A stretch of DNA of 25,123 nucleotides from a virus, in IMG/VR virus record IMGVR_UViG_3300025133_007396, positions 1 to 25,123 of that record; one strand, 5' to 3'. A program made the position numbers and the translations under genes. Shown in pieces: positions 1,953 to 25,123 of this stretch. Numbering within the stretch: position 1 is the first letter of the stretch; every line of letters begins with the position of its first letter. Below the pieces are notes generated by a model. That model searched no databases. It saw only the letters and a program-made list of their open reading frames with translations, and had not been told where the DNA came from.

Positions 1953-2726
1953 TTATTCAAAGACCTTTTTGATGATACCAGCAATGGTGTCTATATTCCT
2001 TTTACGGCGATCTTCATCAACTACCTTTTTAACAAAAGTTGTGGTTTCTTTGAATTTCGGCGAGATGGCTAAGTGAGAAAATCGTATAAAAGCAGCACTA
2101 ACCATTCCAACTAATTCGCCTCTGTGGTTCATTATCGGAGAACCTGAACTTCCGCCCATCGCTGGCAATGTGTAAATTGCCCTATCATATACTCGCGCAT
2201 CCCCATCATAAAAGCCCTGAAAAGTCGGTATCATATTTTGATCAAAAATTCCGAGTGGCGCAGCTAAATTATATACACGATCGCCCGGCTTGGGCTTATC
2301 AACTGCAATGCGCATTGCGGGGTTTGATAAATCCTTTACATATAATATACAGAGATCATTTTGTTGATCGGTCGCGACGATTTCAACTGGGAAGTATGTG
2401 CTTTCAATGTTAATAACATAGAAGAACATTTTATGTTCAACTTTGCTTAAAAACTTCTTTGCTTTTTCGTCAATACAGACATGGGCGGCCGTTAAAACAT
2501 ATGCACCGTTGCCCGTTACTTTGACGACTGCACCAGAGGCCACGGCGCCAAATCGCTTTGTTACACAGAAGTTCTTTTTTTCTGGGTGGCACATTGTTGC
2601 TTCTATTGTTTTTTGTATTTTAAGAAAAGAATCGCGCGGCAAAATATTTTTTACAGTATTGCGATGGTGACCGCACGACAACAAAGTGATCAAGATCAAG
2701 GGAGTCAAAAATTTAAATAACTTCAT
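1953..2726 (-). CDS. Trypsin-like serine protease, lipoprotein
   Basis: Residues 1-18 form a lipoprotein signal with lipobox LLSC (Cys18), so the enzyme should be anchored in the host envelope facing the periplasm or outside. The chymotrypsin/trypsin-fold domain carries the full triad: H82 in LTAAHVC, D124 in QQNDLCILYV, and S194 in GGSSGSPI. At 257 residues it is a single protease domain with no PDZ domain visible, unlike DegP. It is the only convincing minus-strand gene here, set between tRNA-Glu and the endolysin operon. No good ribosome-binding site precedes the ATG. It could shave host surface proteins, process phage proteins, or be a transferred cargo gene. Confidence 0.85.
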   Translation of the reverse strand: MKLFKFLTPLILITLLSCGHHRNTVKNILPRDSFLKIQKTIEATMCHPEKKNFCVTKRFGAVASGAVVKVTGNGAYVLTAAHVCIDEKAKKFLSKVEHKMFFYVINIESTYFPVEIVATDQQNDLCILYVKDLSNPAMRIAVDKPKPGDRVYNLAAPLGIFDQNMIPTFQGFYDGDARVYDRAIYTLPAMGGSSGSPIMNHRGELVGMVSAAFIRFSHLAISPKFKETTTFVKKVVDEDRRKRNIDTIAGIIKKVFE

Positions 2727-3177: not shown

Positions 3178-4125
3178 ATGATTTTGTATGTCGGCCAGAC
3201 AGGCGAATTAATTAAAAAACTGCAGGAAGGGCTAGCTTATTTGGGTTATCATCCCGGGCCAATCGATGGTCATTTTGGCACTATGACTGAAGATGCTGTA
3301 GAGGCATTCCAAAAGAAATCAAAAATCTATGTAGACGGCAAAGTCGGCTCTTCAACCGCAGGCATGTTTAATCGAGCCTTGGGTTCACCCAAAATTGAAC
3401 TTCATTTAGATTTAAAGCCGCCAGAAGAAACCATTCCAGATGCTCCTCAAAAGCTCAAATGGGTTAGATGCCCAGCCGATAGATTTCAGAACAGAGGCGG
3501 CTTTACTAGAACAACTTTACGCGAAGACACTGCGGAAGCTTATAACAAATTATATGAAGAAGTTCATGCGCTTGGGGGAATTATTACTTCTGCCGGCGGC
3601 AGGCGCGGCCTTAGTTCTAAAGCCAGCCCAGCGAGAAGTAAGAAGTCTATGCACTATGTTGGCCGAGCATTTGATATGGCACTTCCAACCGGTATGCAAA
3701 ATCCGAGTACAGACCCTTACTTGATTGAAAATGTTGGCGGGAGGAAGTGGACTGTTTGGTGTAAAACAGACAACCCGAACGTAGCCGAGCAAACTATTGA
3801 AGCTTCCTATGTTGTCACAAAGAAAAACTCTAAAGGTAAAAGATACACGGTCGTCAAAACAACAGAAATAACTTGTAGAGCTTTTAATTTTACTGATTTG
3901 GCCGAAAAACATGGATTCAAGCGCATTTCAGCTAGGCGCAGTTTCTTTAAGGGTGGCGCCTATGGTGGTGCCGAATGGTGGCATTTTCAGTGGGAAGATG
4001 ATTTAGAGTCAAATAAAACTACATTTGGCGAAGAATTATTAAAAGTATATACTCTACAAAAAGCTAAAAAGTTTGTATACTGGAATGAGGCCAAGAATTG
4101 TAAATGGAAAGTTAATTGGTTTTAA
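3178..4125 (+). CDS. Endolysin: peptidoglycan-binding domain plus M15 peptidase
   Basis: Residues 5-66 are a PG_binding_1 domain (GELIKKLQEGLAYLGYHPGP, then DGHFGTMTEDAVEAFQ). After a proline-rich linker (residues 80-92) comes an M15-family (VanY / D-Ala-D-Ala or L-Ala-D-Glu peptidase) domain with its zinc ligands: SMHYVGRAFDMA supplies H159 and D166, and EWWHFQW supplies H269. It cuts peptide stems of peptidoglycan. There is no signal peptide, so export would need a holin or another route. AAGGGG lies nine bases before the ATG. The peptidase contains a long insertion between the two metal motifs (about 100 residues) and a C-terminal extension of about 45 residues. A virion-borne entry enzyme is the alternative role. 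Confidence 0.9.
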   Translation: MILYVGQTGELIKKLQEGLAYLGYHPGPIDGHFGTMTEDAVEAFQKKSKIYVDGKVGSSTAGMFNRALGSPKIELHLDLKPPEETIPDAPQKLKWVRCPADRFQNRGGFTRTTLREDTAEAYNKLYEEVHALGGIITSAGGRRGLSSKASPARSKKSMHYVGRAFDMALPTGMQNPSTDPYLIENVGGRKWTVWCKTDNPNVAEQTIEASYVVTKKNSKGKRYTVVKTTEITCRAFNFTDLAEKHGFKRISARRSFFKGGAYGGAEWWHFQWEDDLESNKTTFGEELLKVYTLQKAKKFVYWNEAKNCKWKVNWF

Positions 4126-4134
4126 GGAGAAAAA

Positions 4135-5223
4135 ATGAACGAAGAAAATAATCAAAATGAGTGGACAGAACCGGCGATTGAAGACGATGATGATTTTGAT
4201 TTTGTAGACCATTATGGCGCAGAAATAGATACGAAAAGTCAAGACCAGCTACCCGATAATACTATAAAAAGCGCACTCAATTGCGCCTTTGTTGGTTTCG
4301 GCGGCGGCGGCGGCAAGATGGCGAAAGCTTTTTTAGACTTAGGTTTTAATAAGACTTTTCTAGTTAACACAACGGCCAAGGATCAGCCAGAAGGAATGGA
4401 CCCTAAGCACTTAGTATTAATTCCAGATGCCGATGGTGTCGGAAAGGATGTCGATCTCGGAAAGGCAATTTTTAAGAATAATGGAACAGTTGTTGAGGAC
4501 GCCTTAAAAAATAAATTAGGCAATATTGATTGGCTTTTTGTTTGTGCTGGCGGTGGCGGGGGTACTGGAAGTGCCTGTGTCGCCCTTCATGACGTTTTTG
4601 ACAGATATCTTAAGTCTGTACAGGCCGGCGGAAAGGTTGTTTATATTGTTTCGTGGCCATCTGCTCAAGAGTTGCTTAATAAAACAATTGCTAAAAATGC
4701 ACTAGCACTAGCCAATGATGTCGCTGGCCACACTCATATTTTGTTGGACAACGAAAGGCAATTAGAGTTGTTGCGCGGTAAGGTGGGCATACTTGGAATG
4801 TACCCAACGGCGAATAAAACATTTGCTAAGTTATTTAGTCAAATCCTTAAGTTGGCATCAGAACAATCATCTGTGCAAACATTTGATTCGAAAGATTTGG
4901 AAACGTGCCTAAGAACAGAAAAGAGAGTTTTCTTGGGTACCACAGTTATTCCAGACCCCAAGGCTTCAAGTTTGGGCGCTGCCATTTATCAAAATTGTTC
5001 TAAAAGATCGCCCTGCCCGCCGCCTCGCACAAAGGGTGAAACTGGCACTATGCTTTTAGTTGCAACACCAGAAATGGCAAATGATCCAGAAATTAGTAAA
5101 CATTTAGATGCTGCTATTTCATATGTCGGCGGAAGAACAGATACTTTGTTTTCTGGAGTGTATATAAGAAACAAGTTGCCGGGACTTATCGCTATATTAA
5201 TGGTGAGCGGTTTAGACAAGTAA
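4135..5223 (+). CDS. FtsZ/tubulin-family GTPase
   Basis: This 362-residue protein has the FtsZ/tubulin nucleotide-binding pattern: T1 loop GFGGGGGKMAKAF (residues 54-66), a strand ending LVNTTAKDQ (76-84), the tubulin signature GGGGGTGSA (139-147), LLDNERQL (203-210) corresponding to the nucleotide-sensing N-D-R region, and a T7-loop-like FDSKDLE (250-256) with two aspartates (D251, D254) where FtsZ has the catalytic pair. It should therefore bind GTP and polymerise, with hydrolysis completed at subunit contacts. A 40-residue acidic N-terminal tail precedes the fold. In some large phages such proteins (PhuZ, TubZ) centre or move viral DNA. It is spaced 9 bases after the endolysin and has an AAGGAG site. 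Confidence 0.85.
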   Translation: MNEENNQNEWTEPAIEDDDDFDFVDHYGAEIDTKSQDQLPDNTIKSALNCAFVGFGGGGGKMAKAFLDLGFNKTFLVNTTAKDQPEGMDPKHLVLIPDADGVGKDVDLGKAIFKNNGTVVEDALKNKLGNIDWLFVCAGGGGGTGSACVALHDVFDRYLKSVQAGGKVVYIVSWPSAQELLNKTIAKNALALANDVAGHTHILLDNERQLELLRGKVGILGMYPTANKTFAKLFSQILKLASEQSSVQTFDSKDLETCLRTEKRVFLGTTVIPDPKASSLGAAIYQNCSKRSPCPPPRTKGETGTMLLVATPEMANDPEISKHLDAAISYVGGRTDTLFSGVYIRNKLPGLIAILMVSGLDK

Positions 5224-5238
5224 AAAACTAGTTATTAT

Positions 5239-5472
5239 GTGGACGATGAGCTTAAAGAATTATTAGGTAGCGTAAGAAGTAAAACTTTTGCGCTGCTTTT
5301 TATGTTATTTGCTGCAGCGCTTTTTGTTGAAGAGCACGTTAAGCACGATTTGACACAAGAATTAGAAATAAGACAGCTAATTAATTATGTTTCGCACTTA
5401 GAAAAACAAACCTCTAATTACTATCAGGAGATTCAACGCCTTAAGACAAGAAACGCGTGCATAGTAAGATGA
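5239..5472 (+). CDS. Membrane-anchored coiled-coil protein, 77 aa
   Basis: A GTG start is the most natural reading, with no clear ribosome-binding site. Residues 15-30 (KTFALLFMLFAAALFV) form one membrane helix, followed by a long amphipathic helix (HDLTQELEIRQLINYVSHLEKQTSNYYQEIQRLK) that looks like a coiled coil. The stop overlaps the kinase ATG (ATGA at 5469-5472). i-spanins have this form and the endolysin is two genes upstream. An alternative is a membrane anchor for the neighbouring tubulin-like polymer. Both are inference. Confidence 0.5.
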   Translation: MDDELKELLGSVRSKTFALLFMLFAAALFVEEHVKHDLTQELEIRQLINYVSHLEKQTSNYYQEIQRLKTRNACIVR

Positions 5473-6698
5473 AAATATTATTTGAAAATTGGCGAAAGTT
5501 TTTAAAAGAAGAGGACACAACGAATGTTCCTTGGCGTAAAACTGTTCGGGAGAAGCCTGCAGGGTTTCATGGCGCTCGCACCGTACCTGCTAAAAAGGGC
5601 CTTGAGCCTATGGATCCAAGGGGCATAAGAACTCCTGCCGCCACGCCACCCCCGGGTGTGGGAACGAAGGAAATCCCCGCAGTTCAACTTTCTGGTGAAA
5701 CGCAAGTAAACAACGCAAGCAAACTTTATGAATATTTTAACGAAGATCATCGCATCAGAAATATATTTGCAGAAGGTTGGGGCGGCGGCTATACTGTCCC
5801 GAGCACACTTCGACCAGAGCCGGCTAAGAGATTAATTAATTTTATGGTGGCGAATAATCCCATTTTTCAGAACAATAAAATTGTTGAATATTTAGGTGGC
5901 GGCTCTTTTGGGTTTGTAGTACTGCTTGATAACAACCATGCTTTAAAAATCTTTGTAGGATCATATGATCCGGGCAGTGGGCGCATCGATCCAACCGGCG
6001 GATTAGATATTAAAAGATATAAAGCCTCACAAGAAAAAGCATTTGGTGGAACGTCCGAACCCGGCGAATTAATGATTTATGATGAAGGCGAAATTGAAAC
6101 TCCGCTTGGTAGAAAGTGGTTTTACGCAGAAATGCCACAATTAAGAACTCTCAGTGATTATATGCGGTATGTCCACAAAGATAAGGATGCGCAGAAAGTT
6201 ACAGAGGGCGTTGATTATGAAATTTCATTTTTAAAGGAATTGGCTTATATATCTAACTTGGTTGATGCACACGGCGCAGAGGCAGTTATAGAAGATGCGG
6301 AATCCCCAGCACAAGCTCAAGCTTGGGAAGATCTTTGGAATGCCGATCCGGAGGCCCTAGCGGCGAAGCTCAAAGACAAATCTCGCAAGAAGCCAATTAT
6401 AAATATGATGAAGTGTTGTATGGCTATTGATACTAAGCCACGCGGTGATGAGCCTACGCAGCTAGCAGAGTTTGCGGAATTGTTAGGGCAGGGAAATTTA
6501 GATGCTATTTTTAACACAACCGGCTATAAAAATCGTAAAAAGCTTTTTCTTTTAGACAAAACATATGCCAAGAATCTTTTTAATCAACTTAAAGAAATAT
6601 TAAAAACTAAAATTCTTGATGATATCACGGACATAAGGGGCGCGAATGTTGGTATCTCCCAACAAGATGAAAGCCTTCCAATTATCTTTGATTACTGA
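5469..6698 (+). CDS. Protein-kinase-like protein with N-terminal virion-type helix
   Basis: From the ATG at 5469 (overlapping the previous stop) the product is 409 residues. It opens with the amphipathic helix MKILFENWRKFLKEE, then a low-complexity P/G-rich linker (residues 20-75). A kinase-like fold follows: Gly-rich loop YLGGGSFGFVV (141-151), HALKIF with K160 as the ATP-lysine candidate, hinge FYAEMPQL (219-225), a long helical region, catalytic-loop-like DIRGANVG (D388, N393), and IIFDY (405-409) matching the metal-binding DFG. The chain ends right at that motif, with no activation segment or further C-lobe. It may phosphorylate host or phage proteins and be carried in the virion, but activity is unproven. 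A longer GTG start at 5457 is possible. Confidence 0.65.
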   Translation: MKILFENWRKFLKEEDTTNVPWRKTVREKPAGFHGARTVPAKKGLEPMDPRGIRTPAATPPPGVGTKEIPAVQLSGETQVNNASKLYEYFNEDHRIRNIFAEGWGGGYTVPSTLRPEPAKRLINFMVANNPIFQNNKIVEYLGGGSFGFVVLLDNNHALKIFVGSYDPGSGRIDPTGGLDIKRYKASQEKAFGGTSEPGELMIYDEGEIETPLGRKWFYAEMPQLRTLSDYMRYVHKDKDAQKVTEGVDYEISFLKELAYISNLVDAHGAEAVIEDAESPAQAQAWEDLWNADPEALAAKLKDKSRKKPIINMMKCCMAIDTKPRGDEPTQLAEFAELLGQGNLDAIFNTTGYKNRKKLFLLDKTYAKNLFNQLKEILKTKILDDITDIRGANVGISQQDESLPIIFDY

Positions 6699-9315: not shown

Positions 9316-9625
9316 AGAAAAAGTGTATGACGAAATTTCGCTACTAATTAAAGAGCATTGCGGATTACCATGCTATTGGTATGAATTAACAATCGACCAA
9401 CAAAACTTTGTTATCGCGATGTTAGAGACGCAAAAAAATCTTAAGGTGGAAACAATGAAAGACTTGCTTTTAGAACGCATTCGTTATAAAATAGAGGAGT
9501 GCAGAGAAGAAAGAGAGCATTTTGCCAATGTTGAAGAGGCACAGGAGTCTTTCGACAATCTTCTCGATGAACTTGAAACACTAGTAGACGATTGGTTTGA
9601 TAATGAAAACAAAAGCAGAGAATAA
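9305..9625 (+). CDS. Acidic coiled-coil protein, 106 aa
   Basis: It overlaps the preceding stop and runs 23 bases into the polymerase gene. AGGAG at 9297-9301 fits the second of two tandem ATGs (9308) better than the first. The protein is mostly helical and acidic: KVYDEISLLIKEHCGL, then LLLERIRYKIEECREEREHF, then SFDNLLDELETLVDDWFDNE. It is coupled to the DNA polymerase gene, so a polymerase-associated role is conceivable but not shown. Confidence 0.55.
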   Translation: MMIEEKVYDEISLLIKEHCGLPCYWYELTIDQQNFVIAMLETQKNLKVETMKDLLLERIRYKIEECREEREHFANVEEAQESFDNLLDELETLVDDWFDNENKSRE

Positions 9626-12600
9626 TATACCCTTTGTAAATTTACACGGACACACAACATTTAGCATTTTTGATGCAATAGGCTTTCCCCAAGAACATAT
9701 GGATTTTGCATATGAGAATGGGTCGAAAGCCTTGGCAATCACTGATCATGGAAACATGAACGGCCTTTCCTATCAGGTTCTTCACGCGAAGAAGATGAAA
9801 GAAGAAGGCCGCGATCTCAAGCCGATTTATGGTATTGAGGCGTACTTCATTGATGATCTGGACAAATGGAAGGGCGAATACGAAGAACACAAAACAACAC
9901 AGAAAAAGAAGAAGAAAGAGGACATCTCTATGTCCGTAGAAGACGAACAAGAAAGTAAGCGAGCGGCAAAGAATATCCTTAATAGGCGAGCACACTTGGT
10001 ATTGTTGGCTCAGAATCAGAAAGGGTTAACAAATCTTTTCCAATTGGTTTCCAAGTCGTTTCAACCCGAAAGCTTCTATCGTTATCCTCGCATGGATTAC
10101 AAAATGCTTGAGGAGCATAACGAAGGAATCATATGTTCTTCTGCCTGCCTGGGAGGCCCTCTAGGCAAAGATTATTGGAACAACCGGGACCAGGGCTCTA
10201 AAGCAGTAAAAGACGCGATGACGGACACTGTGAGGCGCTTTAAAGACATCTTTGGCGATAGGTTCTATGGAGAACTCCAATGGAACACAATCCCCGAACA
10301 ACATGAAGTCAATAGACACATCATTGACGTGTGTGCAGAAGAGGGTGTTGAGCTTATTTCAACCGCCGATGCCCACTATCCGCGACCAGAACTATATAAG
10401 GACAGAGAGCTTTATAAGCAGCTAGGCTGGCTTGGGAAATCTAAGCCAGATTATGCAGATAACAAGCTGCCCAACAGCAGAGAGGAACTAAAATATGAGC
10501 TTTATCCGAAGAGCGGCGAACAAATGTGGGAAGCGTATAAAAGATACAGCAGAGAATGTAATGTTGTATACGATGATGATGCCATTCTTGGCAGTATCGA
10601 GCGTACATCTGACATCGCTTTTAGTCGTATCGATAGTTTCTACCCGAACGATGAAGTCCAGCTACCAGAATTTGTTGTGCCCAAGGATAAAACCGAAGAA
10701 GAAGCCCTAATTGAAATGTGTATCGCCGGGCTTAAAGCCAAGGGATTACACAAGAATAACGAATATGTTTTGAGACTTCAGAAGGAGTACGCGGTCATTA
10801 AAGATCGCGGCTTTGCAAAGTACTTCCTTACAATGAAGGCTATCTCCGACAAGGCGCAGTCGTGCCAGTTGGTGGGTAGTGGTAGGGGTAGCGCTGCTGG
10901 TTCCCTCGTTGCATATGTGCTGGATATTACACAGGTTGATCCGATTAAGTTTGGGCTTCTGTTTGAGAGATTCTTGACGAAGGATGGTAGCGGTTATCCC
11001 GATATTGATTATGATGTTTCAGATCCGATGGAACTGAAGGATATGTTTATTAATGAGTGGGGCAAGAACAATGTTGTGCCCATCTCAAATTATAACACGC
11101 TGCAGTTTCGTTCTTTGATTAAAGACATCAGCAAGTTTTACGGCATACCTTTCACTGAAGCGAACAAGGTAACGAGCCAAATGCTTGACGAGGCAACACC
11201 AATTGCGAAGAAGGCACACGGCATCAAAGCCGGTGTGTATGTTCCAACGTTTGAAGAATTAATGGAATATAGCTATACTTTGAAGGCATATTTTAACAAG
11301 TATCCACACATTAAAGAACACGTATTGAATCTGAAAGGGCAGATCCGTTCAGTTTCGCGACACGCAGGCGGCGTGCTTGTAGCGGATGATTTGAATAAGA
11401 AAATGCCGCTAATTAATAGTGGGGGAGTTATACAAACCCCTTGGAGTGAAGGACAAAATGTTAGACATCTTGAGCCTCTTGGCTTTATTAAGTTTGATAT
11501 TCTCGGACTTGCATCATTACGAATGGTTGAGGATTGCATCAGGCACATCCTTCGGCGGCATCATGGCGTGGAGACACCAACTTTTTCAGATGTTAAAGAG
11601 TGGTATGACAAGCATTTGCATCCCGATGTAATTGATTTTAATGATCAGAAGGTTTATAAAAATATATTCCACAAAGGTAAGTGGGCTGGCGTATTTCAGT
11701 TTGCAAACAATGGCGCGCAGAATTTCTGCAGGAAATCAAAACCAAAGAGTATCATTGATATTTCAGCGATTACTTCGATTTATCGCCCGGGCCCTTTGAG
11801 CGCCGGCGTTGATAACCAATATGTAAATGCGAAGAACAATCCTTCAAGTGTGAAATATATTCACAAGCTGATTAAGGAAGTTACTAAGGAAACTCACGGC
11901 TTTCTTATCTTCCAAGAACAGATCGCTTTGTTGGCTCACAAGCTGGGCAAAGATCTTTCTCTTGACGAAGGCAACATGCTTCGCAAACTATTAACCAAAA
12001 AAGGAACAACAGGAAAAACTTATGAAAAGAAAAAGAAGATTTACAACAAGTTTATTGAAGGCTGTGTCGAAAAGAGGATCGACAAAAGCGAAGCTGAAAA
12101 GCTCTGGCAAACATTCGAATACTTTTCGGGGTATGGCTTTAATAAGTCCCACGCAGTCAGCTATTCTATTCTTAGCTATCAGTGTGCCTATCTTCTTAAT
12201 TACTATCCCTCTGAGTGGCTGGCGGCTTTTTTGGACAAAGAACCAGAGGACAAGAAGGCAAAAGCTATATCCATCGCAAGAAGTCTTGGATATAATATCA
12301 AAACAACAGACATAAACACCTCTGGTAAAGTTTGGGAGATTGATGGTAAAACACTAATCCAGCCGCTTACTTCAATTAAGGGCTTGGGCGCTGTTGCGAT
12401 TGATCAGATTATTATGAACAGGCCTTTTAATAATGTTGAGGAGTTGTTGTTTAATGAGAATATTTCATACAGTAAGCTGAATAAAAAGGGCATCGATGTA
12501 TTAACTCGCAGTCAAGCGCTAAATTGTTTGATGGACGATAGATTCGCTGGCCTTAAACACTTTTGGTCTGCCGTTGCGGTAGATCGGCCGAAGACGAAGA

Positions 12601-13019
12601 AGAAACTTGATGAGAACATCGAACTTTACAAGGACGAAGGAAGCTTTACAAATGAAGAAAAGGTTCAGTATCTCGACTCTTTGACAGGTGTATATCCAAT
12701 TGAAATGGTTGTTGACGATACTACAATTAAGAATTTTGAAAAGTATAAGGTACCGCCGCTTGGTGAATTCGACCCGGCTCTTAAGATAGCTTGGTTTATT
12801 CCGAAGGAAATTGTCGAAAAGAAAACAAAACACGGAAAGATATACTGGATTTTACGTGTTACCGATAGCTCTAGTAAACTTAATTCTATTAAATGCTGGG
12901 GCGTGAAAAAAGATCAGCAATTAGCGCTGAACAAGCCTTATATGGCCAAGCTTGACTATAATAGTAAATGGGGATTCAGCACAAGATCAATTAAGTATAA
13001 TTTTAAGCTAGTGGGGTGA
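9603..13019 (+). CDS. dnaE: DNA polymerase III alpha subunit (DnaE-type replicase)
   Basis: About 1138 residues, close to E. coli DnaE (1160). An N-terminal PHP domain retains metal-site motifs (NLHGHTTFS near residue 14, ITDHGN near 47, CSSACLGG, STADAHYP), so a proofreading or related hydrolase role is possible. The family C palm has GSGRGSAAGSLVAY, then PDIDYDVSD with the catalytic Asp pair, and FIKFDILGLASLR with the third Asp. KSHAVSYSILSYQCAYLLNY lies in the fingers. The C-terminal 100 residues look like an OB fold. It synthesises DNA, normally with a sliding clamp. The start is the ATG at 9603, overlapping the previous gene; an upstream TTG at 9597 adds two residues. Most tailed phages use family A or B polymerases. 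Confidence 0.95.
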   Translation: MKTKAENNIPFVNLHGHTTFSIFDAIGFPQEHMDFAYENGSKALAITDHGNMNGLSYQVLHAKKMKEEGRDLKPIYGIEAYFIDDLDKWKGEYEEHKTTQKKKKKEDISMSVEDEQESKRAAKNILNRRAHLVLLAQNQKGLTNLFQLVSKSFQPESFYRYPRMDYKMLEEHNEGIICSSACLGGPLGKDYWNNRDQGSKAVKDAMTDTVRRFKDIFGDRFYGELQWNTIPEQHEVNRHIIDVCAEEGVELISTADAHYPRPELYKDRELYKQLGWLGKSKPDYADNKLPNSREELKYELYPKSGEQMWEAYKRYSRECNVVYDDDAILGSIERTSDIAFSRIDSFYPNDEVQLPEFVVPKDKTEEEALIEMCIAGLKAKGLHKNNEYVLRLQKEYAVIKDRGFAKYFLTMKAISDKAQSCQLVGSGRGSAAGSLVAYVLDITQVDPIKFGLLFERFLTKDGSGYPDIDYDVSDPMELKDMFINEWGKNNVVPISNYNTLQFRSLIKDISKFYGIPFTEANKVTSQMLDEATPIAKKAHGIKAGVYVPTFEELMEYSYTLKAYFNKYPHIKEHVLNLKGQIRSVSRHAGGVLVADDLNKKMPLINSGGVIQTPWSEGQNVRHLEPLGFIKFDILGLASLRMVEDCIRHILRRHHGVETPTFSDVKEWYDKHLHPDVIDFNDQKVYKNIFHKGKWAGVFQFANNGAQNFCRKSKPKSIIDISAITSIYRPGPLSAGVDNQYVNAKNNPSSVKYIHKLIKEVTKETHGFLIFQEQIALLAHKLGKDLSLDEGNMLRKLLTKKGTTGKTYEKKKKIYNKFIEGCVEKRIDKSEAEKLWQTFEYFSGYGFNKSHAVSYSILSYQCAYLLNYYPSEWLAAFLDKEPEDKKAKAISIARSLGYNIKTTDINTSGKVWEIDGKTLIQPLTSIKGLGAVAIDQIIMNRPFNNVEELLFNENISYSKLNKKGIDVLTRSQALNCLMDDRFAGLKHFWSAVAVDRPKTKKKLDENIELYKDEGSFTNEEKVQYLDSLTGVYPIEMVVDDTTIKNFEKYKVPPLGEFDPALKIAWFIPKEIVEKKTKHGKIYWILRVTDSSSKLNSIKCWGVKKDQQLALNKPYMAKLDYNSKWGFSTRSIKYNFKLVG

Positions 13020-15667: not shown

Positions 15668-16744
15668 ATGCAATCGACTTATGATTTAGACAAATATCAG
15701 AAAAAAGCTTGGTCATATATTGCTAAAATGAATACAAATGAAGTCAAGTTAACGTTTGATGATATTTTATTGCTGCCTCAATACTCAACAATTATTAGCA
15801 GAAAGTATGTAGTGTTAGAACAAGAATTAGATTCGAAAAATAGTTTGCAGATTCCAATCATATCTAGCCCAATGGACACTATAACAGGCACAACTATGAC
15901 TCAAGCAATGAGTGATTTGGGTGGTTTGGGAATTCTACACAGATACAATACAATCGAAGAACAGGCGGCCATGGTCCGCAAGGTATCAGGCTTGTGTGGC
16001 GCAGCCATCGGAGTAGCTGGAGATTTTGAAGAGCGCTCTACAGCACTATATGATGCTGGTGCAAGAGTTCTTTGTCTAGATGTTGCGCACGGCCATCATG
16101 TTCTAGTGGAGCGGGCATTAAAGACATTAAAGGATATTTATGGTAACGACGTTCATCTGATGGCTGGCAATGTTGCAACACTGGGAGGATTCAATGATTT
16201 GGCTGACTGGGGTGCTGATAGCATTAGATGTGGTATTGGAGGTGGTAGCATTTGTACTACAAGAATACAAACGGGACACGGTGTTCCGGGGTTTGAGACG
16301 ATACTTGAGTGCGCCCAATCAGACAGAGATGCAAAAATCATCATTGACGGCGGTATTAAAAATTCGGGTGATATTGTTAAGGCTCTCGCTGCTGGCGCTG
16401 ATTTTGTCATGTTGGGATCACTCCTTGCTGGAACTACTGAATCTCCCGGTGAAGTGGTAACTTACACAGATGGTAGCAAACGAAAGGCTTATCGCGGCAT
16501 GGCCAGCAAAAAGGCACAAGAAGCTTGGCGGGGAAAGTCTAGCACCCCCGAAGGAATTGCGACAACAGTACATTATAAAGGCTCTGTCAAAAATATAATA
16601 AAAGATTTGGTAGGCGGCATTAAGAGTGGTTGTTCTTATTCGGGAGCTAAAAACTTGAAAGAGCTAAGGGCACATTGTCATTTTATAAGACAATCAGCGG
16701 CGAGTAAGTATGAAAGCTCTCCGCATATTTTGGTAAAAGAATGA
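15668..16744 (+). CDS. IMP dehydrogenase / GMP reductase family enzyme
   Basis: A TIM-barrel enzyme of 358 residues. Recognisable parts are LTFDDILLLPQYS (28-40), ISSPMDTITGTTM (65-77), the catalytic loop GIGGGSICTTRIQTG (189-203, Cys196), the phosphate-binding IIIDGGIKNSGDI and DFVMLGSLLAGTTESPGE, then YRGMAS and YKGSVKN. There are no CBS domains. The C-terminus (ESSPHILVKE) resembles IMP dehydrogenase, but the flap between residues 279 and 295 is short like GMP reductase, with no Asp-Arg-Tyr and no Ser-Glu at the GMP reductase position. It acts on IMP/XMP/GMP in guanine-nucleotide supply; direction is undecided. GGGAG precedes the start. Confidence 0.85.
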   Translation: MQSTYDLDKYQKKAWSYIAKMNTNEVKLTFDDILLLPQYSTIISRKYVVLEQELDSKNSLQIPIISSPMDTITGTTMTQAMSDLGGLGILHRYNTIEEQAAMVRKVSGLCGAAIGVAGDFEERSTALYDAGARVLCLDVAHGHHVLVERALKTLKDIYGNDVHLMAGNVATLGGFNDLADWGADSIRCGIGGGSICTTRIQTGHGVPGFETILECAQSDRDAKIIIDGGIKNSGDIVKALAAGADFVMLGSLLAGTTESPGEVVTYTDGSKRKAYRGMASKKAQEAWRGKSSTPEGIATTVHYKGSVKNIIKDLVGGIKSGCSYSGAKNLKELRAHCHFIRQSAASKYESSPHILVKE

Positions 16745-18133: not shown

Positions 18134-18385
18134 ATGAAAAAGAAAGATGCCTTTATAGAATTTCTACGGGAAAGAGATATTCTGTATATAAAAGACAATG
18201 TTTATCACGCTGAAAGAGCTTTTAAAACAAAGGCTCTAATGGATTGGTTTTTGAAACAAAAAAATGAAAAACATTTTAAAAAATATGTTATTCTAATTGA
18301 AGAGTTTTTAGTTGGAGATATTGACATTTCCATAGAAGATGATAGAATAGTAGTAGAAGAGAAGAAAAAACAGGAGCACGCGTGA
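18134..18385 (+). CDS. Unknown protein upstream of GroEL, 83 aa
   Basis: It begins 13 bases after the terminator T run without a visible ribosome-binding site and overlaps the GroEL start by four bases. The product is mixed alpha/beta: KKDAFIEFLRERDILYIK, AERAFKTKALMDWFLKQK, KYVILIEEFLVGDIDISIE, DDRIVVEEKKKQ. No promoter is obvious before it, so GroEL expression may rely on terminator read-through or on a promoter type I cannot see. Function unknown. Coupling to GroEL suggests linked expression. Confidence 0.55.
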   Translation: MKKKDAFIEFLRERDILYIKDNVYHAERAFKTKALMDWFLKQKNEKHFKKYVILIEEFLVGDIDISIEDDRIVVEEKKKQEHA

Positions 18386-19956
18386 ATAAAGAATATTGTA
18401 ATGGCTTTGCACTTCATGAAAAATTATTAAAAGGAGTAGACACATTAACAGAAAATGTTGCTGCCACTTTAGGTCCGAAAGGAAGAAACGTAATAATTCA
18501 TAGAAAAAATGCCAACCCTTTTATTACCAAAGACGGCGTTACTATCGCAAAATTTGTAGATTTATCAGATCCTTTTGAGAATGCTGCAGCCCAAATTATA
18601 AAAGAGGCCGCGCTTAATACAAATATGATGGCTGGTGATGGAACTACAACATCTATAGTATTAACGCAAAAATTAATTTCAGAAGCCCAAAAATATTTAA
18701 GAAGCGGCATTTCCCCAGTCGAACTCAAGAGAGGGATGGATGTCGCCGTTGAAGAAGTAATACAATATTTGACTACTAGCGCCAAACAAGTGTCTAGCAA
18801 AGAAGACATAGCCAGTGTTGCAACTATATCAGCGAACGGAGACAAAGTAATAGGTGAGTTAATTGCCATGGCCATTGATCAAGCAGGTAAAAATGGTTCT
18901 GTTAGCATTGAGGAGGCTCGCTCTGCCGAGACTTCTTTAGAGCTAATTGAAGGGTTTGCCTTTGACAGTGGATATGTATCGCCCAGCTTCATTACCGACG
19001 AAAGAACAGGAGCAGTTAAGCATGAAAATTGTTTATTTTTTATAACTGACCACAAGCTAGAAGCCCTTGACGAGGTGTTGCCAGTATTGGAATTAGCCGC
19101 AAGGGAATCTAGGCCCTTCATCATTATTGCGGATGATATAAAAGGGCAGTTTTTAGCGGCCCTTGTTGCCAACTCTCTGAGGGGCTCAATGAAGGTTGCA
19201 GCCGTTAAAGCGCCCTTTTATGGCGAGCAACGGCAAGAAATTCTTTCTGATTTGGCGCTATCTACTGGCGCTACTTTTATAAAAAGAGAGTCGGGCATTT
19301 CTTTTAAAGAAATTAAATTAAGTCATTTTGGCAGAGCTAAAAATATTGAAATTTATAAAAACAAAACTATAATTGCGGGCGGTAAGGCTGATTATAAGAG
19401 AGTAGAAGAAAAAATAGAAACAATTAAAGAACAAATAAAATCTGAAGAGTCCATGCAGATCTGCGAACGGCTTCAAGAAAGAATTACAAGATTGGTCAGC
19501 GGAGTTGCAGTCATTAAGGTTGGTGCAGCAAGTCAGATAGAGTTGGTAGAAAAGGTACATCGTATTGAGGATGCTTTGGGCGCGGTTCGCGCTGCTCAAT
19601 TGGGTGGCATTCACGCTGGTGGTGGTGTCGGCTTGGTCAGAGCTTCAAAAAAGATTAAAGTGCCAAAGAAATTACCAGAAGAACAAAAGATCGGGTTTAA
19701 AATTGTTTTAACGGCAATCAAGGAGCCTATTAAACAAATGGCCCGTAATGCCGGCGAGTCACCAGATATCATTCTTAGCTTGGTAGAAAAGAGTGCTGGT
19801 CCAGTTGGTTATGATTTTGTTTCAAGAAAAATTATAAACCTTGTCAAGCACGGAATTATTGATCCGGTTCGGGTGACATGCTGTGCCCTAAGAAACGCAG
19901 CTTCAGTCGCCTCAACTTTAATTACAACAACCTGTGCAATTGTAGAGGAGGAATAA
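18382..19956 (+). CDS. groEL: GroEL chaperonin (Cpn60)
   Basis: 524 residues from a GTG start with AGGAG five bases before it. The ATP-binding signature is intact: TLGPKGRNV (29-37), KDGVTIA (50-56), GDGTTT (85-90), VGAASQIELVEKVHRIEDAL with the Asp needed for ATP hydrolysis, and the closing equatorial segment (NAASVASTLITTTCAIV). The apical domain (roughly 185-370) is complete but diverged. The Gly/Met-rich C-terminal tail of bacterial GroEL is absent. It should form a ring that folds phage proteins, with the phage GroES at 7339 or host GroES as lid. It is coupled to the 83-residue gene before it. Confidence 0.95.
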   Translation: MNKEYCNGFALHEKLLKGVDTLTENVAATLGPKGRNVIIHRKNANPFITKDGVTIAKFVDLSDPFENAAAQIIKEAALNTNMMAGDGTTTSIVLTQKLISEAQKYLRSGISPVELKRGMDVAVEEVIQYLTTSAKQVSSKEDIASVATISANGDKVIGELIAMAIDQAGKNGSVSIEEARSAETSLELIEGFAFDSGYVSPSFITDERTGAVKHENCLFFITDHKLEALDEVLPVLELAARESRPFIIIADDIKGQFLAALVANSLRGSMKVAAVKAPFYGEQRQEILSDLALSTGATFIKRESGISFKEIKLSHFGRAKNIEIYKNKTIIAGGKADYKRVEEKIETIKEQIKSEESMQICERLQERITRLVSGVAVIKVGAASQIELVEKVHRIEDALGAVRAAQLGGIHAGGGVGLVRASKKIKVPKKLPEEQKIGFKIVLTAIKEPIKQMARNAGESPDIILSLVEKSAGPVGYDFVSRKIINLVKHGIIDPVRVTCCALRNAASVASTLITTTCAIVEEE

Positions 19957-22931: not shown

Positions 22932-23360
22932 ATGTCAAATCTAGCAAGAACAAGGGAACGACTTTTTGGAGATCTCTTTAACGATTGGAACGATCATTTT
23001 GATGTCATGTTTCGCCCTTTGAGCGGAACACCTTTTAATATGGCACCAACAACCATTGGCCTTCCACATACCAACGTTTTGAATCACAAAGACAACTGGA
23101 CCATCGAGGTGGCAGCACCGGGATTGGACAAGAAGGATTTCAAGATCGCGATTGATAAGGATGTGCTTACAGTTTCATATGACGTAAATAAGGAGAGCAG
23201 CAATTCGTTTGTTCGTAATTCTTTCCAGCGTTCATGGAATCTACCAGAGGGCACAAAGTTTGAAGATATTGCAGCAACTTATAAGTCGGGCATTTTGGGC
23301 CTTACTGTGAAGAAGCCGGATATTATCAAGCAAGAAACTAAGTATATTAACATTACTTAA
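22932..23360 (+). CDS. Small heat-shock protein (Hsp20/IbpA family)
   Basis: 142 residues with a complete alpha-crystallin domain (about 48-132): TNVLNHKDNWTIEVAAPGLD, FKIAIDKDVLTVSYD, FQRSWNLPEGTKFEDIAA and the family hallmark YKSGILGLTV, followed by a C-terminal I-x-I anchor (YINIT). It holds unfolding proteins for refolding by ATP-driven chaperones and forms oligomers. Here it complements GroEL and GroES. It has its own sigma70 promoter, AGGAG and a hairpin downstream. Many large phages, especially marine ones, carry such genes. Confidence 0.93.
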   Translation: MSNLARTRERLFGDLFNDWNDHFDVMFRPLSGTPFNMAPTTIGLPHTNVLNHKDNWTIEVAAPGLDKKDFKIAIDKDVLTVSYDVNKESSNSFVRNSFQRSWNLPEGTKFEDIAATYKSGILGLTVKKPDIIKQETKYINIT

Positions 23361-24523: not shown

Positions 24524-24758
24524 AACTTTTACAGTTTGTCGTCAGGACGACGAAACCGGAGTATCTGGTACTGGTATCGTAATCGAAGGTTGTAAGCTAG
24601 CAACAGGCCAGTGTATTGTTCACTGGCTATACCCTCCTCCGAGGGGTGGTATTGCTATATTTGATTCAATGGATGACTTCATCAAAGTTCATATCAAACC
24701 ACACCCAGACAACAAAACGATTATTACTTTTGAAGACGGCGAACAAGAAACTTACTAA
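24447..24758 (+). CDS. Phage-type small beta protein, 103 aa
   Basis: After a 20-residue acidic and proline-rich leader, the core (residues 27-95) reads RTFTVCRQDDETGVSGTGIV, IEGCKLATGQCIVHWLYPPP, GGIAIFDSMDDFIKVHIKPH. The 'F-x-(V/L)-x-R-x-x-D-x-(T/S)-G-V-S-G-T-G-x-V-x-E-G', '(V/I)-x-x-W', 'S-(I/V)-x-D' order is a small conserved beta protein I associate with many phage genomes, of unknown function. GAGG lies upstream. It overlaps the methyltransferase 3' end by 77 bases and joins the next gene by a one-base TAATG overlap. Confidence 0.7.
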   Translation: MEETQNEATEDLKPKPPPKLAAQGIRTFTVCRQDDETGVSGTGIVIEGCKLATGQCIVHWLYPPPRGGIAIFDSMDDFIKVHIKPHPDNKTIITFEDGEQETY

Positions 24759-25123
24759 TGAAAAATTTAATTGGCAATACGCCACTGATAAAAATTAGCG
24801 ATAAGATATATGCAAAGCTAGAAACCTACAATCCATCAGGTTCAATTAAAGACAGGATGGCTTATTACATTTTGGTGGAAGCTAAAAAACGCTGGGAGTT
24901 AAAACCCGGCGACACCATTGTTGAAGCCACGTCGGGGAACACAGGAATCGCCATGTCGATGCTGGGTGCATCTATGGGACACCCAGTTATCATTATCATG
25001 CCACGCAACATGAGCGAGGAAAGAAAGTGCATGATGCGCGTATACGGCGCGGAAATCATTGAGGTAGGTGATAACGCCTTTAAGGACGCAATTGCGCTTA
25101 GAGACGAAATGTGCGCTGCTAGA
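24758..25123 (+). CDS. Cysteine synthase-like PLP enzyme, truncated by window edge
   Basis: An open frame from ATG 24758 runs in frame to the last base (122 residues seen; the family is about 300). It begins IGNTPLIKISDKIYAKLETY, then NPSGSIKDRMAYYI (residues 28-41), where the Lys in SIKDR is the pyridoxal-phosphate lysine, then VEATSGNTGIAMSM with the substrate-binding TSGNTG loop, then IIIMPRNMSEERKCMMRVYG. This is the start of CysK/CysM O-acetylserine sulfhydrylase or a close relative such as cystathionine beta-synthase core. It makes cysteine from activated serine and sulfide. It is joined by TAATG to the gene before. An auxiliary metabolic gene in a phage. Confidence 0.9.
   Translation, partial: MKNLIGNTPLIKISDKIYAKLETYNPSGSIKDRMAYYILVEAKKRWELKPGDTIVEATSGNTGIAMSMLGASMGHPVIIIMPRNMSEERKCMMRVYGAEIIEVGDNAFKDAIALRDEMCAAR

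What the first reader, a model, noticed from the sequence alone, without database searches (positions are those of the whole stretch)
4135..5223. FtsZ/tubulin-family GTPase with intact GTP and T7-loop signatures beside an endolysin
Both glycine-rich nucleotide motifs and the two catalytic-type aspartates are kept, so it should polymerise. The sequence looks closer to FtsZ in layout than to known PhuZ proteins, has a 40-residue acidic N-terminal tail, and is followed by a membrane coiled-coil gene that could be its anchor.
Basis: partly seen in the sequence, partly recalled or inferred. Interest (0 to 1): 0.62.

Follow-up and report, generated by a model that had tools for sequence, protein, structure and literature searches.

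The report
FtsZ-like tubulin of T4-type jumbo phages
This marine virus of bacteria carries its own version of the filament-forming protein that bacteria use to divide (FtsZ, a relative of tubulin); it belongs to a large, apparently undescribed family found in giant T4-type phages, where no such cytoskeleton was known.

Summary
The ORF at 4135-5223 encodes a 362-residue tubulin/FtsZ-fold protein: significant matches to FtsZ and CetZ, a confident AlphaFold model, and all GTP-site loops plus both T7-loop aspartates present. It is one of at least 274 relatives in IMG/VR. In the 91 full-length copies compared, T1, T4 and both T7 aspartates (D251, D254) are essentially invariant, and dN/dS is about 0.07. 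It groups with neither PhuZ, FtsZ, TubZ nor CetZ.

The carriers are uncultured phages with contigs up to 205 kb, a T4-type (gp23) capsid gene, no detectable chimallin, and usually a phage Pol III shared with the window. In 34 of 96 loci the gene lies beside neck genes (gp13-gp14-gp15-sheath), often close after the major capsid gene. What is conserved is an N-terminal acidic peptide (DDFDFIDHY) on a disordered linker.

Best reading: a GTP-driven filament of T4-type jumbo phages that lack the PhuZ nucleus system, placing or moving capsids or genomes late in infection. Polymerisation is well supported by inference; the cellular role is not shown. A new variant of a known kind.

The parts
4135..5223 (+). 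phage tubulin/FtsZ-superfamily GTPase, 362 aa
4124..4129 (+). Shine-Dalgarno AAGGAG, 5 nt before the ATG, overlapping the stop of the upstream gene
   Evidence: read from sequence
4135..4257 (+). acidic, predicted disordered N-terminal tail (residues 1-41)
4189..4215 (+). conserved N-terminal peptide DDFDFVDHY (residues 19-27) inside the variable tail; candidate partner-binding motif
   Evidence: D20 86/90, F21 89/90, F23 81/90 (M 9/90), Y27 76/90 (F 13/90)
4294..4317 (+). T1 glycine-rich loop GFGGGGGK (residues 54-61)
4552..4572 (+). T4 tubulin signature GGGGTGS (residues 140-146)
4876..4902 (+). T7 (synergy) loop QTFDSKDLE (residues 248-256) with D251 and D254
   Evidence: 91/91 relatives keep both Asp
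3178..4125 (+). upstream neighbour: endolysin-like (PG_binding_1 plus M15-like SxHYVGRAFD...EWWHF motifs by eye); not conserved beside relatives
5239..5472 (+). downstream neighbour: 77-aa membrane/coiled-coil ORF; no relative in other loci
5457..6698 (+). downstream 413-aa ORF, kinase-like by eye, with capsid-tag-like N-terminus (likely start 5469); no relative beyond the tag

Best explanation
The gene makes a phage-owned tubulin-superfamily protein that binds GTP, assembles head to tail into filaments, and hydrolyses GTP when the T7 loop (D251, D254) of one subunit completes the active site of the next. It is used by T4-type jumbo phages without the chimallin nucleus. The filament most likely positions or moves phage capsids or replicating genomes late in infection, in the way PhuZ does for nucleus-forming phages; the conserved acidic peptide on the flexible N-terminal tail (DDFDFIDHY) recruits the partner, playing the part that the C-terminal tail plays in FtsZ and TubZ. 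Shown here: fold by homology and model, motif conservation, purifying selection, phage group, gene neighbourhood. Inferred: polymerisation, GTP hydrolysis, partner binding, and the transport/positioning role (the least certain step). My confidence is about 0.9 for a GTP-dependent polymer and about 0.5 for the full statement.
For: Significant homology and model. All catalytic and GTP-site residues kept in 91 copies; dN/dS median 0.068 in 99 close pairs, so selection acts on the protein. It is more conserved than gp23, neck and sheath proteins of the same phages, as multi-interface polymer proteins tend to be (with sampling bias). One copy per genome in the large contigs. Ten of 12 large carriers tested hold a gp23-type capsid gene; none matches phiKZ chimallin, with phiKZ itself as positive control. 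The window shares Pol III alpha at 61-65% identity with seven carriers, six of them with gp23 and up to 205 kb..., tying it to the group. gp13 lies within five genes in 34 of 96 loci, 23 of them also with the gp23 capsid gene, which suggests late, morphogenesis-linked expression. The N-terminal peptide stays conserved while the surrounding linker varies in sequence and length. PhuZ filaments carry capsids to the phage nucleus and position it (PMC10299810, PMC13282480).
Against: No experiment. About 20 loci place the gene beside an SbcCD-type nuclease and others elsewhere, the window included, so the capsid-gene link is not universal. Only 4 of 27 contigs with a related gp23 show the tubulin, and a 257-kb relative lacks it, so it is accessory in the wider group. 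No partner gene is shared across contexts. The window itself has no capsid gene. N207 of FtsZ is not kept.
Confidence: 0.5

Rival explanations
1. It is an antagonist of host division: it mixes with or mimics host FtsZ and disturbs the Z-ring, so that infected cells do not divide and stay large enough for a jumbo burst.
For: Closer to FtsZ/CetZ than to PhuZ in sequence and fold; phage proteins that bind FtsZ are known (T7 gp0.4, PMC13423816). The acidic N-terminal peptide could mimic a binding motif.
Against: Identity to FtsZ is only about 17-23%, so co-polymerisation is unlikely; an intact own GTPase cycle kept in 91 of 91 copies, with the whole C-terminal domain conserved, is more than a decoy needs. 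It frequently sits in the late structural cluster rather than among early host-takeover genes.
Confidence: 0.15
2. It is a TubZ-like DNA segregation motor that keeps the phage genome as a stable episome (pseudolysogeny) or separates replicated genomes.
For: TubZ of low-copy plasmids and one clostridial phage works this way, and a review links jumbo-phage tubulins to pseudolysogeny (PMC7824862). About 20 loci are beside an SbcCD-type DNA nuclease.
Against: No adjacent TubR-like DNA-binding gene or repeat array recurs among the neighbour families; no TubZ-type C-terminal tail, since the protein ends right after the last strand. Weak sequence relation to a plasmid TubZ-like protein (E=0.6).
Confidence: 0.15
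3. It is a virion or prohead component, or an assembly factor, using the tubulin fold as a GTP-regulated scaffold without long filaments.
For: Place between gp23 and gp13/gp14 genes in many loci.
Against: T7 and GTP-site conservation points to a hydrolysis cycle across a filament interface; no capsid-targeting-like N-terminus, unlike many neighbouring proteins; the location varies.
Confidence: 0.1

Closest known systems
PhuZ (phiKZ gp39, 201phi2-1), Chimalliviridae
   Same: phage-encoded tubulin of a jumbo phage; probable function in organising infection
   Different: no detectable sequence similarity in a direct profile comparison (hhalign E=0.32; PHROG PhuZ E=0.14); Foldseek TM about 0.5; here T4-type capsid gene, no chimallin match, N-terminal instead of C-terminal tail, FtsZ-like T1/T4 loops and T7 DxxD
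FtsZ
   Same: T1 GGGGG, NT, T4 GGGTGS-type loop, N206/N227 guanine-site residues, T7 DxxD; TM 0.6-0.68 on query and up to 0.79 on target
   Different: 17-23% identity; about 36 bits against an equivalog cut-off of 295; no C-terminal FtsA/ZipA peptide; T7 Asn replaced by Ser/Thr; own branch outside a fully supported FtsZ group
CetZ (archaeal, 3zid and 4b45)
   Same: best PDB hit by sequence and by fold, including alignment through the C-terminal domain
   Different: 21% identity; archaeal cell-shape proteins; not grouped with it in the tree, whose deep branches are unreliable
TubZ (plasmid and phage segregation)
   Same: superfamily; an extrachromosomal replicon's own tubulin (Foldseek TM about 0.7 to B. 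cereus TubZ)
   Different: no TubR-like neighbour, no C-terminal helix/tail, about 15-17% identity
Other unnamed phage FtsZ-like proteins (BFVD A0A6J5RW92, A0A8S5UFG9; PHROG phrog_17961)
   Same: top viral fold matches, TM 0.70-0.76 on query; phrog_17961 E=4e-4
   Different: only 15-18% identity, so separate families; to my knowledge not characterised

Membership tests
tubulin/FtsZ superfamily | GTPase domain with T1-T4 loops and T4 signature | tested here: met
tubulin/FtsZ superfamily | complete fold: GTPase domain, H7, C-terminal activation domain | tested here: met
   AF2 pLDDT 86.7; Foldseek to CetZ/FtsZ over about 330 columns
tubulin/FtsZ superfamily | T7 acidic catalytic residue(s) | tested here: met
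   D251 and D254 in 91/91
tubulin/FtsZ superfamily | GTP-dependent polymerisation | not testable with these tools
   needs purified protein
FtsZ (cell division equivalog) | score above the TIGR00065 curated cut-off of 295 bits | tested here: not met
   35.6 bits for the window protein
FtsZ (cell division equivalog) | C-terminal conserved peptide for FtsA/ZipA | tested here: not met
   protein ends just after the last strand in the aligned members
PhuZ | sequence/profile match to PhuZ | tested here: not met
   phrog_4733 E=0.14; hhalign E=0.32
PhuZ | occurs in chimallin-encoding (nucleus-forming) phages | tested here: not met
   no match to phiKZ chimallin in 11 carrier contigs and one carrier MAG, positive control found; a divergent shell could be missed
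PhuZ | C-terminal helix H11 and acidic knuckle (PMC3678025) | tested here: not met
   no C-terminal extension
TubZ partition system | adjacent TubR-like DNA-binding protein and tubC repeats | tested here: inconclusive
   no recurrent neighbour of that kind among families seen; repeats were not searched
CetZ | groups with archaeal CetZ | tested here: inconclusive
   best hit by E-value, but the tree does not group them and its deep branches are long

The most novel reading that the evidence does not exclude
T4-type jumbo phages without a phage nucleus build their own FtsZ/CetZ-like cytoskeleton that moves capsids or genomes through the host cell, with an N-terminal hook peptide; that is, phage tubulin transport is independent of the nucleus and arose or was acquired separately from PhuZ.
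Probability: 0.45. Interest if true: 0.8.

Novelty: new variant of a known kind. Interest (0 to 1): 0.6.

Why it matters
Phage tubulins are studied almost only as part of the phage nucleus (PhuZ) or of plasmid-like partition (TubZ). A conserved, FtsZ/CetZ-like tubulin in common marine T4-type jumbo phages, beside head and neck genes and without chimallin, would mean that cytoskeletal organisation of infection is not tied to the nucleus. It would also give an independent phage branch for studying what these filaments do and how the tubulin superfamily diversified. Both become testable by expressing one 362-residue protein.

Tried and rejected
Membrane coiled-coil anchor: no relative in 95 other loci, membrane-like ORF just downstream in 9 of 84. 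Endolysin link: window-specific. T4-type late promoter TATAAATA in the window: 3 matches against 2.2 expected, none upstream of the tubulin gene. Cultured phages: no real homologue among 50,697 records; the only hits are weak matches (E 0.06 to 0.8) to an Acinetobacter phage neck protein, taken as chance. Deep phylogeny: long branches, only the separateness of the group can be used. Cellular origin: four genome-collection hits lie in MAG contigs (Flavobacteriales, Halobacteriovorax) that look like binned phage DNA, and those genomes carry their own true FtsZ. Conservation figures carry sampling bias: relatives were found through the tubulin, and two search patterns contain NTT..KD and NE[RK]Q, so those positions are partly selected for; T1, T4 and T7 are not in those patterns. 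I asked once for the record of Clostridium phage c-st (NC_007581) as a TubZ yardstick; it was not held and nothing came back. On recognising that it is a toxin-carrying phage I did not pursue it.

Full report
The gene. The ORF at 4135-5223 is real: 362 codons, ATG start, Shine-Dalgarno AAGGAG five bases upstream, overlapping the stop of the gene before it. It is a tubulin-superfamily protein by four independent routes: Pfam PF00091 (1.5e-5, under the curated cut-off), the NCBIfam FtsZ model (6e-9, under its equivalog cut-off), PDB sequence search with CetZ 3zid first and FtsZ next, and an AlphaFold2 model (pLDDT 86.7, pTM 0.84) whose best Foldseek matches are CetZ and FtsZ over about 330 columns.

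The active site. Profile alignment with E. coli FtsZ pairs T1 with T1, T4 with T4, N206 with the FtsZ N165 position, and QTFDSKDLE with the T7 loop NVDFADV (the residue assignments to FtsZ numbering are mine). In 91 full-length relatives D251 and D254 are invariant, as are G54, G56, G57, G59, the T4 core GGGTGS, E179, N206 and N227. The FtsZ T7 asparagine is Ser or Thr here, rarely Ala. Among 99 close pairs the median dN/dS is 0.068 and the highest 0.24. I take GTP binding, head-to-tail assembly and hydrolysis as very likely, but none of this has been measured.

The family. IMG/VR holds at least 274 relatives, of which the best 80 were kept (25). None of 50,697 deposited phage genomes has a real homologue, and one weak plasmid TubZ-like match appears. 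Four copies lie in metagenome-assembled bacterial genomes on contigs that look like phage DNA; those genomes also hold an ordinary FtsZ. The family is one branch in a tree with FtsZ, CetZ, TubZ and PhuZ references (84% bootstrap). The FtsZ and PhuZ groups are fully supported and exclude it, but deep order is not resolved because of long branches. Sequence and fold are clearly nearer to FtsZ/CetZ than to PhuZ.

The phage. Carrier contigs reach 205 kb. Ten of 12 large carriers searched hold a T4-type gp23 capsid gene, and none matches phiKZ chimallin, whereas phiKZ shows the reverse. A shell protein too diverged for tblastn is not excluded. The window has no capsid gene of its own, but its Pol III alpha is 61-65% identical to that of seven carriers, six of which also have gp23 among those tested for both plus G015, and its trypsin-like gene family also occurs in other carriers. 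So the window is most likely a fragment of a T4-type jumbo phage. Carriers have one tubulin each (the faint extra hits at E about 0.01 are short). The gene is not universal: 4 of 27 contigs with a related gp23 show it, and a 257-kb relative lacks it. Most of those contigs are fragments, so 4 of 27 is a lower bound.

The neighbourhood. In 34 of 96 loci the head-tail adaptor (gp13-like) lies within five genes, usually in the order gp23 - tubulin - gp13 - gp14 - gp15 - sheath; 20 loci have an SbcCD-type nuclease upstream; the rest, the window included, have other settings. The endolysin, the 77-residue membrane coiled-coil ORF and the 413-residue ORF beside the window's copy have no relatives beside the other copies. 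Only 9 of 84 loci have a membrane-like ORF right downstream, of several unrelated sequences. The proposed anchor is therefore not a general part of the system.

The N-terminal tail. Residues 1-34 are predicted disordered, and the tail varies greatly in length and sequence (total protein length 344 to 468), yet a peptide [DE]DFDF[VI][DE]HY is kept in nearly all copies. The C-terminus ends at the last strand. FtsZ and TubZ recruit partners through a C-terminal tail (established knowledge; PMC3678025 for TubZ), so here the hook seems to have moved to the N-terminus. That is an inference.

What it does. Best reading: an own filament that positions or moves capsids or genomes late in infection, a PhuZ-like job without the nucleus. 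The gene order supports a late, morphogenesis-linked role but is not universal. Rivals are a host-division antagonist, a TubZ-like segregation motor and a structural or assembly factor. I put about 0.9 on a GTP-dependent polymer and 0.5 on the positioning/transport role.

Novelty. Literature searches found phage tubulins only as PhuZ of nucleus-forming phages and TubZ. [quoted passage not shown] I found no description of an FtsZ/CetZ-like tubulin in T4-type jumbo phages. Only open-licence papers could be searched, so this is not proof of absence.

Noticed in passing
window 5469 onward and 13079 onward; many ORFs in L003-L095: A short N-terminal tag, MK[ILV]T+xxL+QIIKEE or MKLLMENWRKFVNE, is on 101 of 1383 ORFs near the tubulin loci against 1 of 776 internal control windows. 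It ends in (I/L)xE like T4 capsid-targeting sequences cut by the prohead protease, so it may mark proteins packaged in the head.
   Followed up: partly
window 5457-6698: A 413-residue ORF with such a tag has, by eye, kinase-like motifs (GGGSFGFVV, ALKIFV, DIRGAN, IIFDY); no Pfam or PHROG match and no relative beyond the tag. Possibly a packaged kinase.
   Followed up: partly
window 9597-13019: A complete bacterial-type DNA polymerase III alpha (PHP, NTPase, finger, HHH), shared at 61-65% identity with other carriers of T4-type capsid genes; T4 itself uses a B-family polymerase.
   Followed up: partly
window 18382-19956, 15668-16744, 22932-23360, 24758-25123: The fragment also carries a group I-like chaperonin, IMP dehydrogenase, HSP20 and the start of a PLP-dependent (cysteine synthase-like) enzyme.
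   Followed up: no
window 1953-2726 -: A trypsin-like protease with a lipoprotein-like N-terminus on the opposite strand, with relatives in at least seven other tubulin loci.
   Followed up: no
L188: One tubulin copy, in a 29.5-kb contig, has a single in-frame TGA; sequencing error, decay or recoding not resolved.
   Followed up: no
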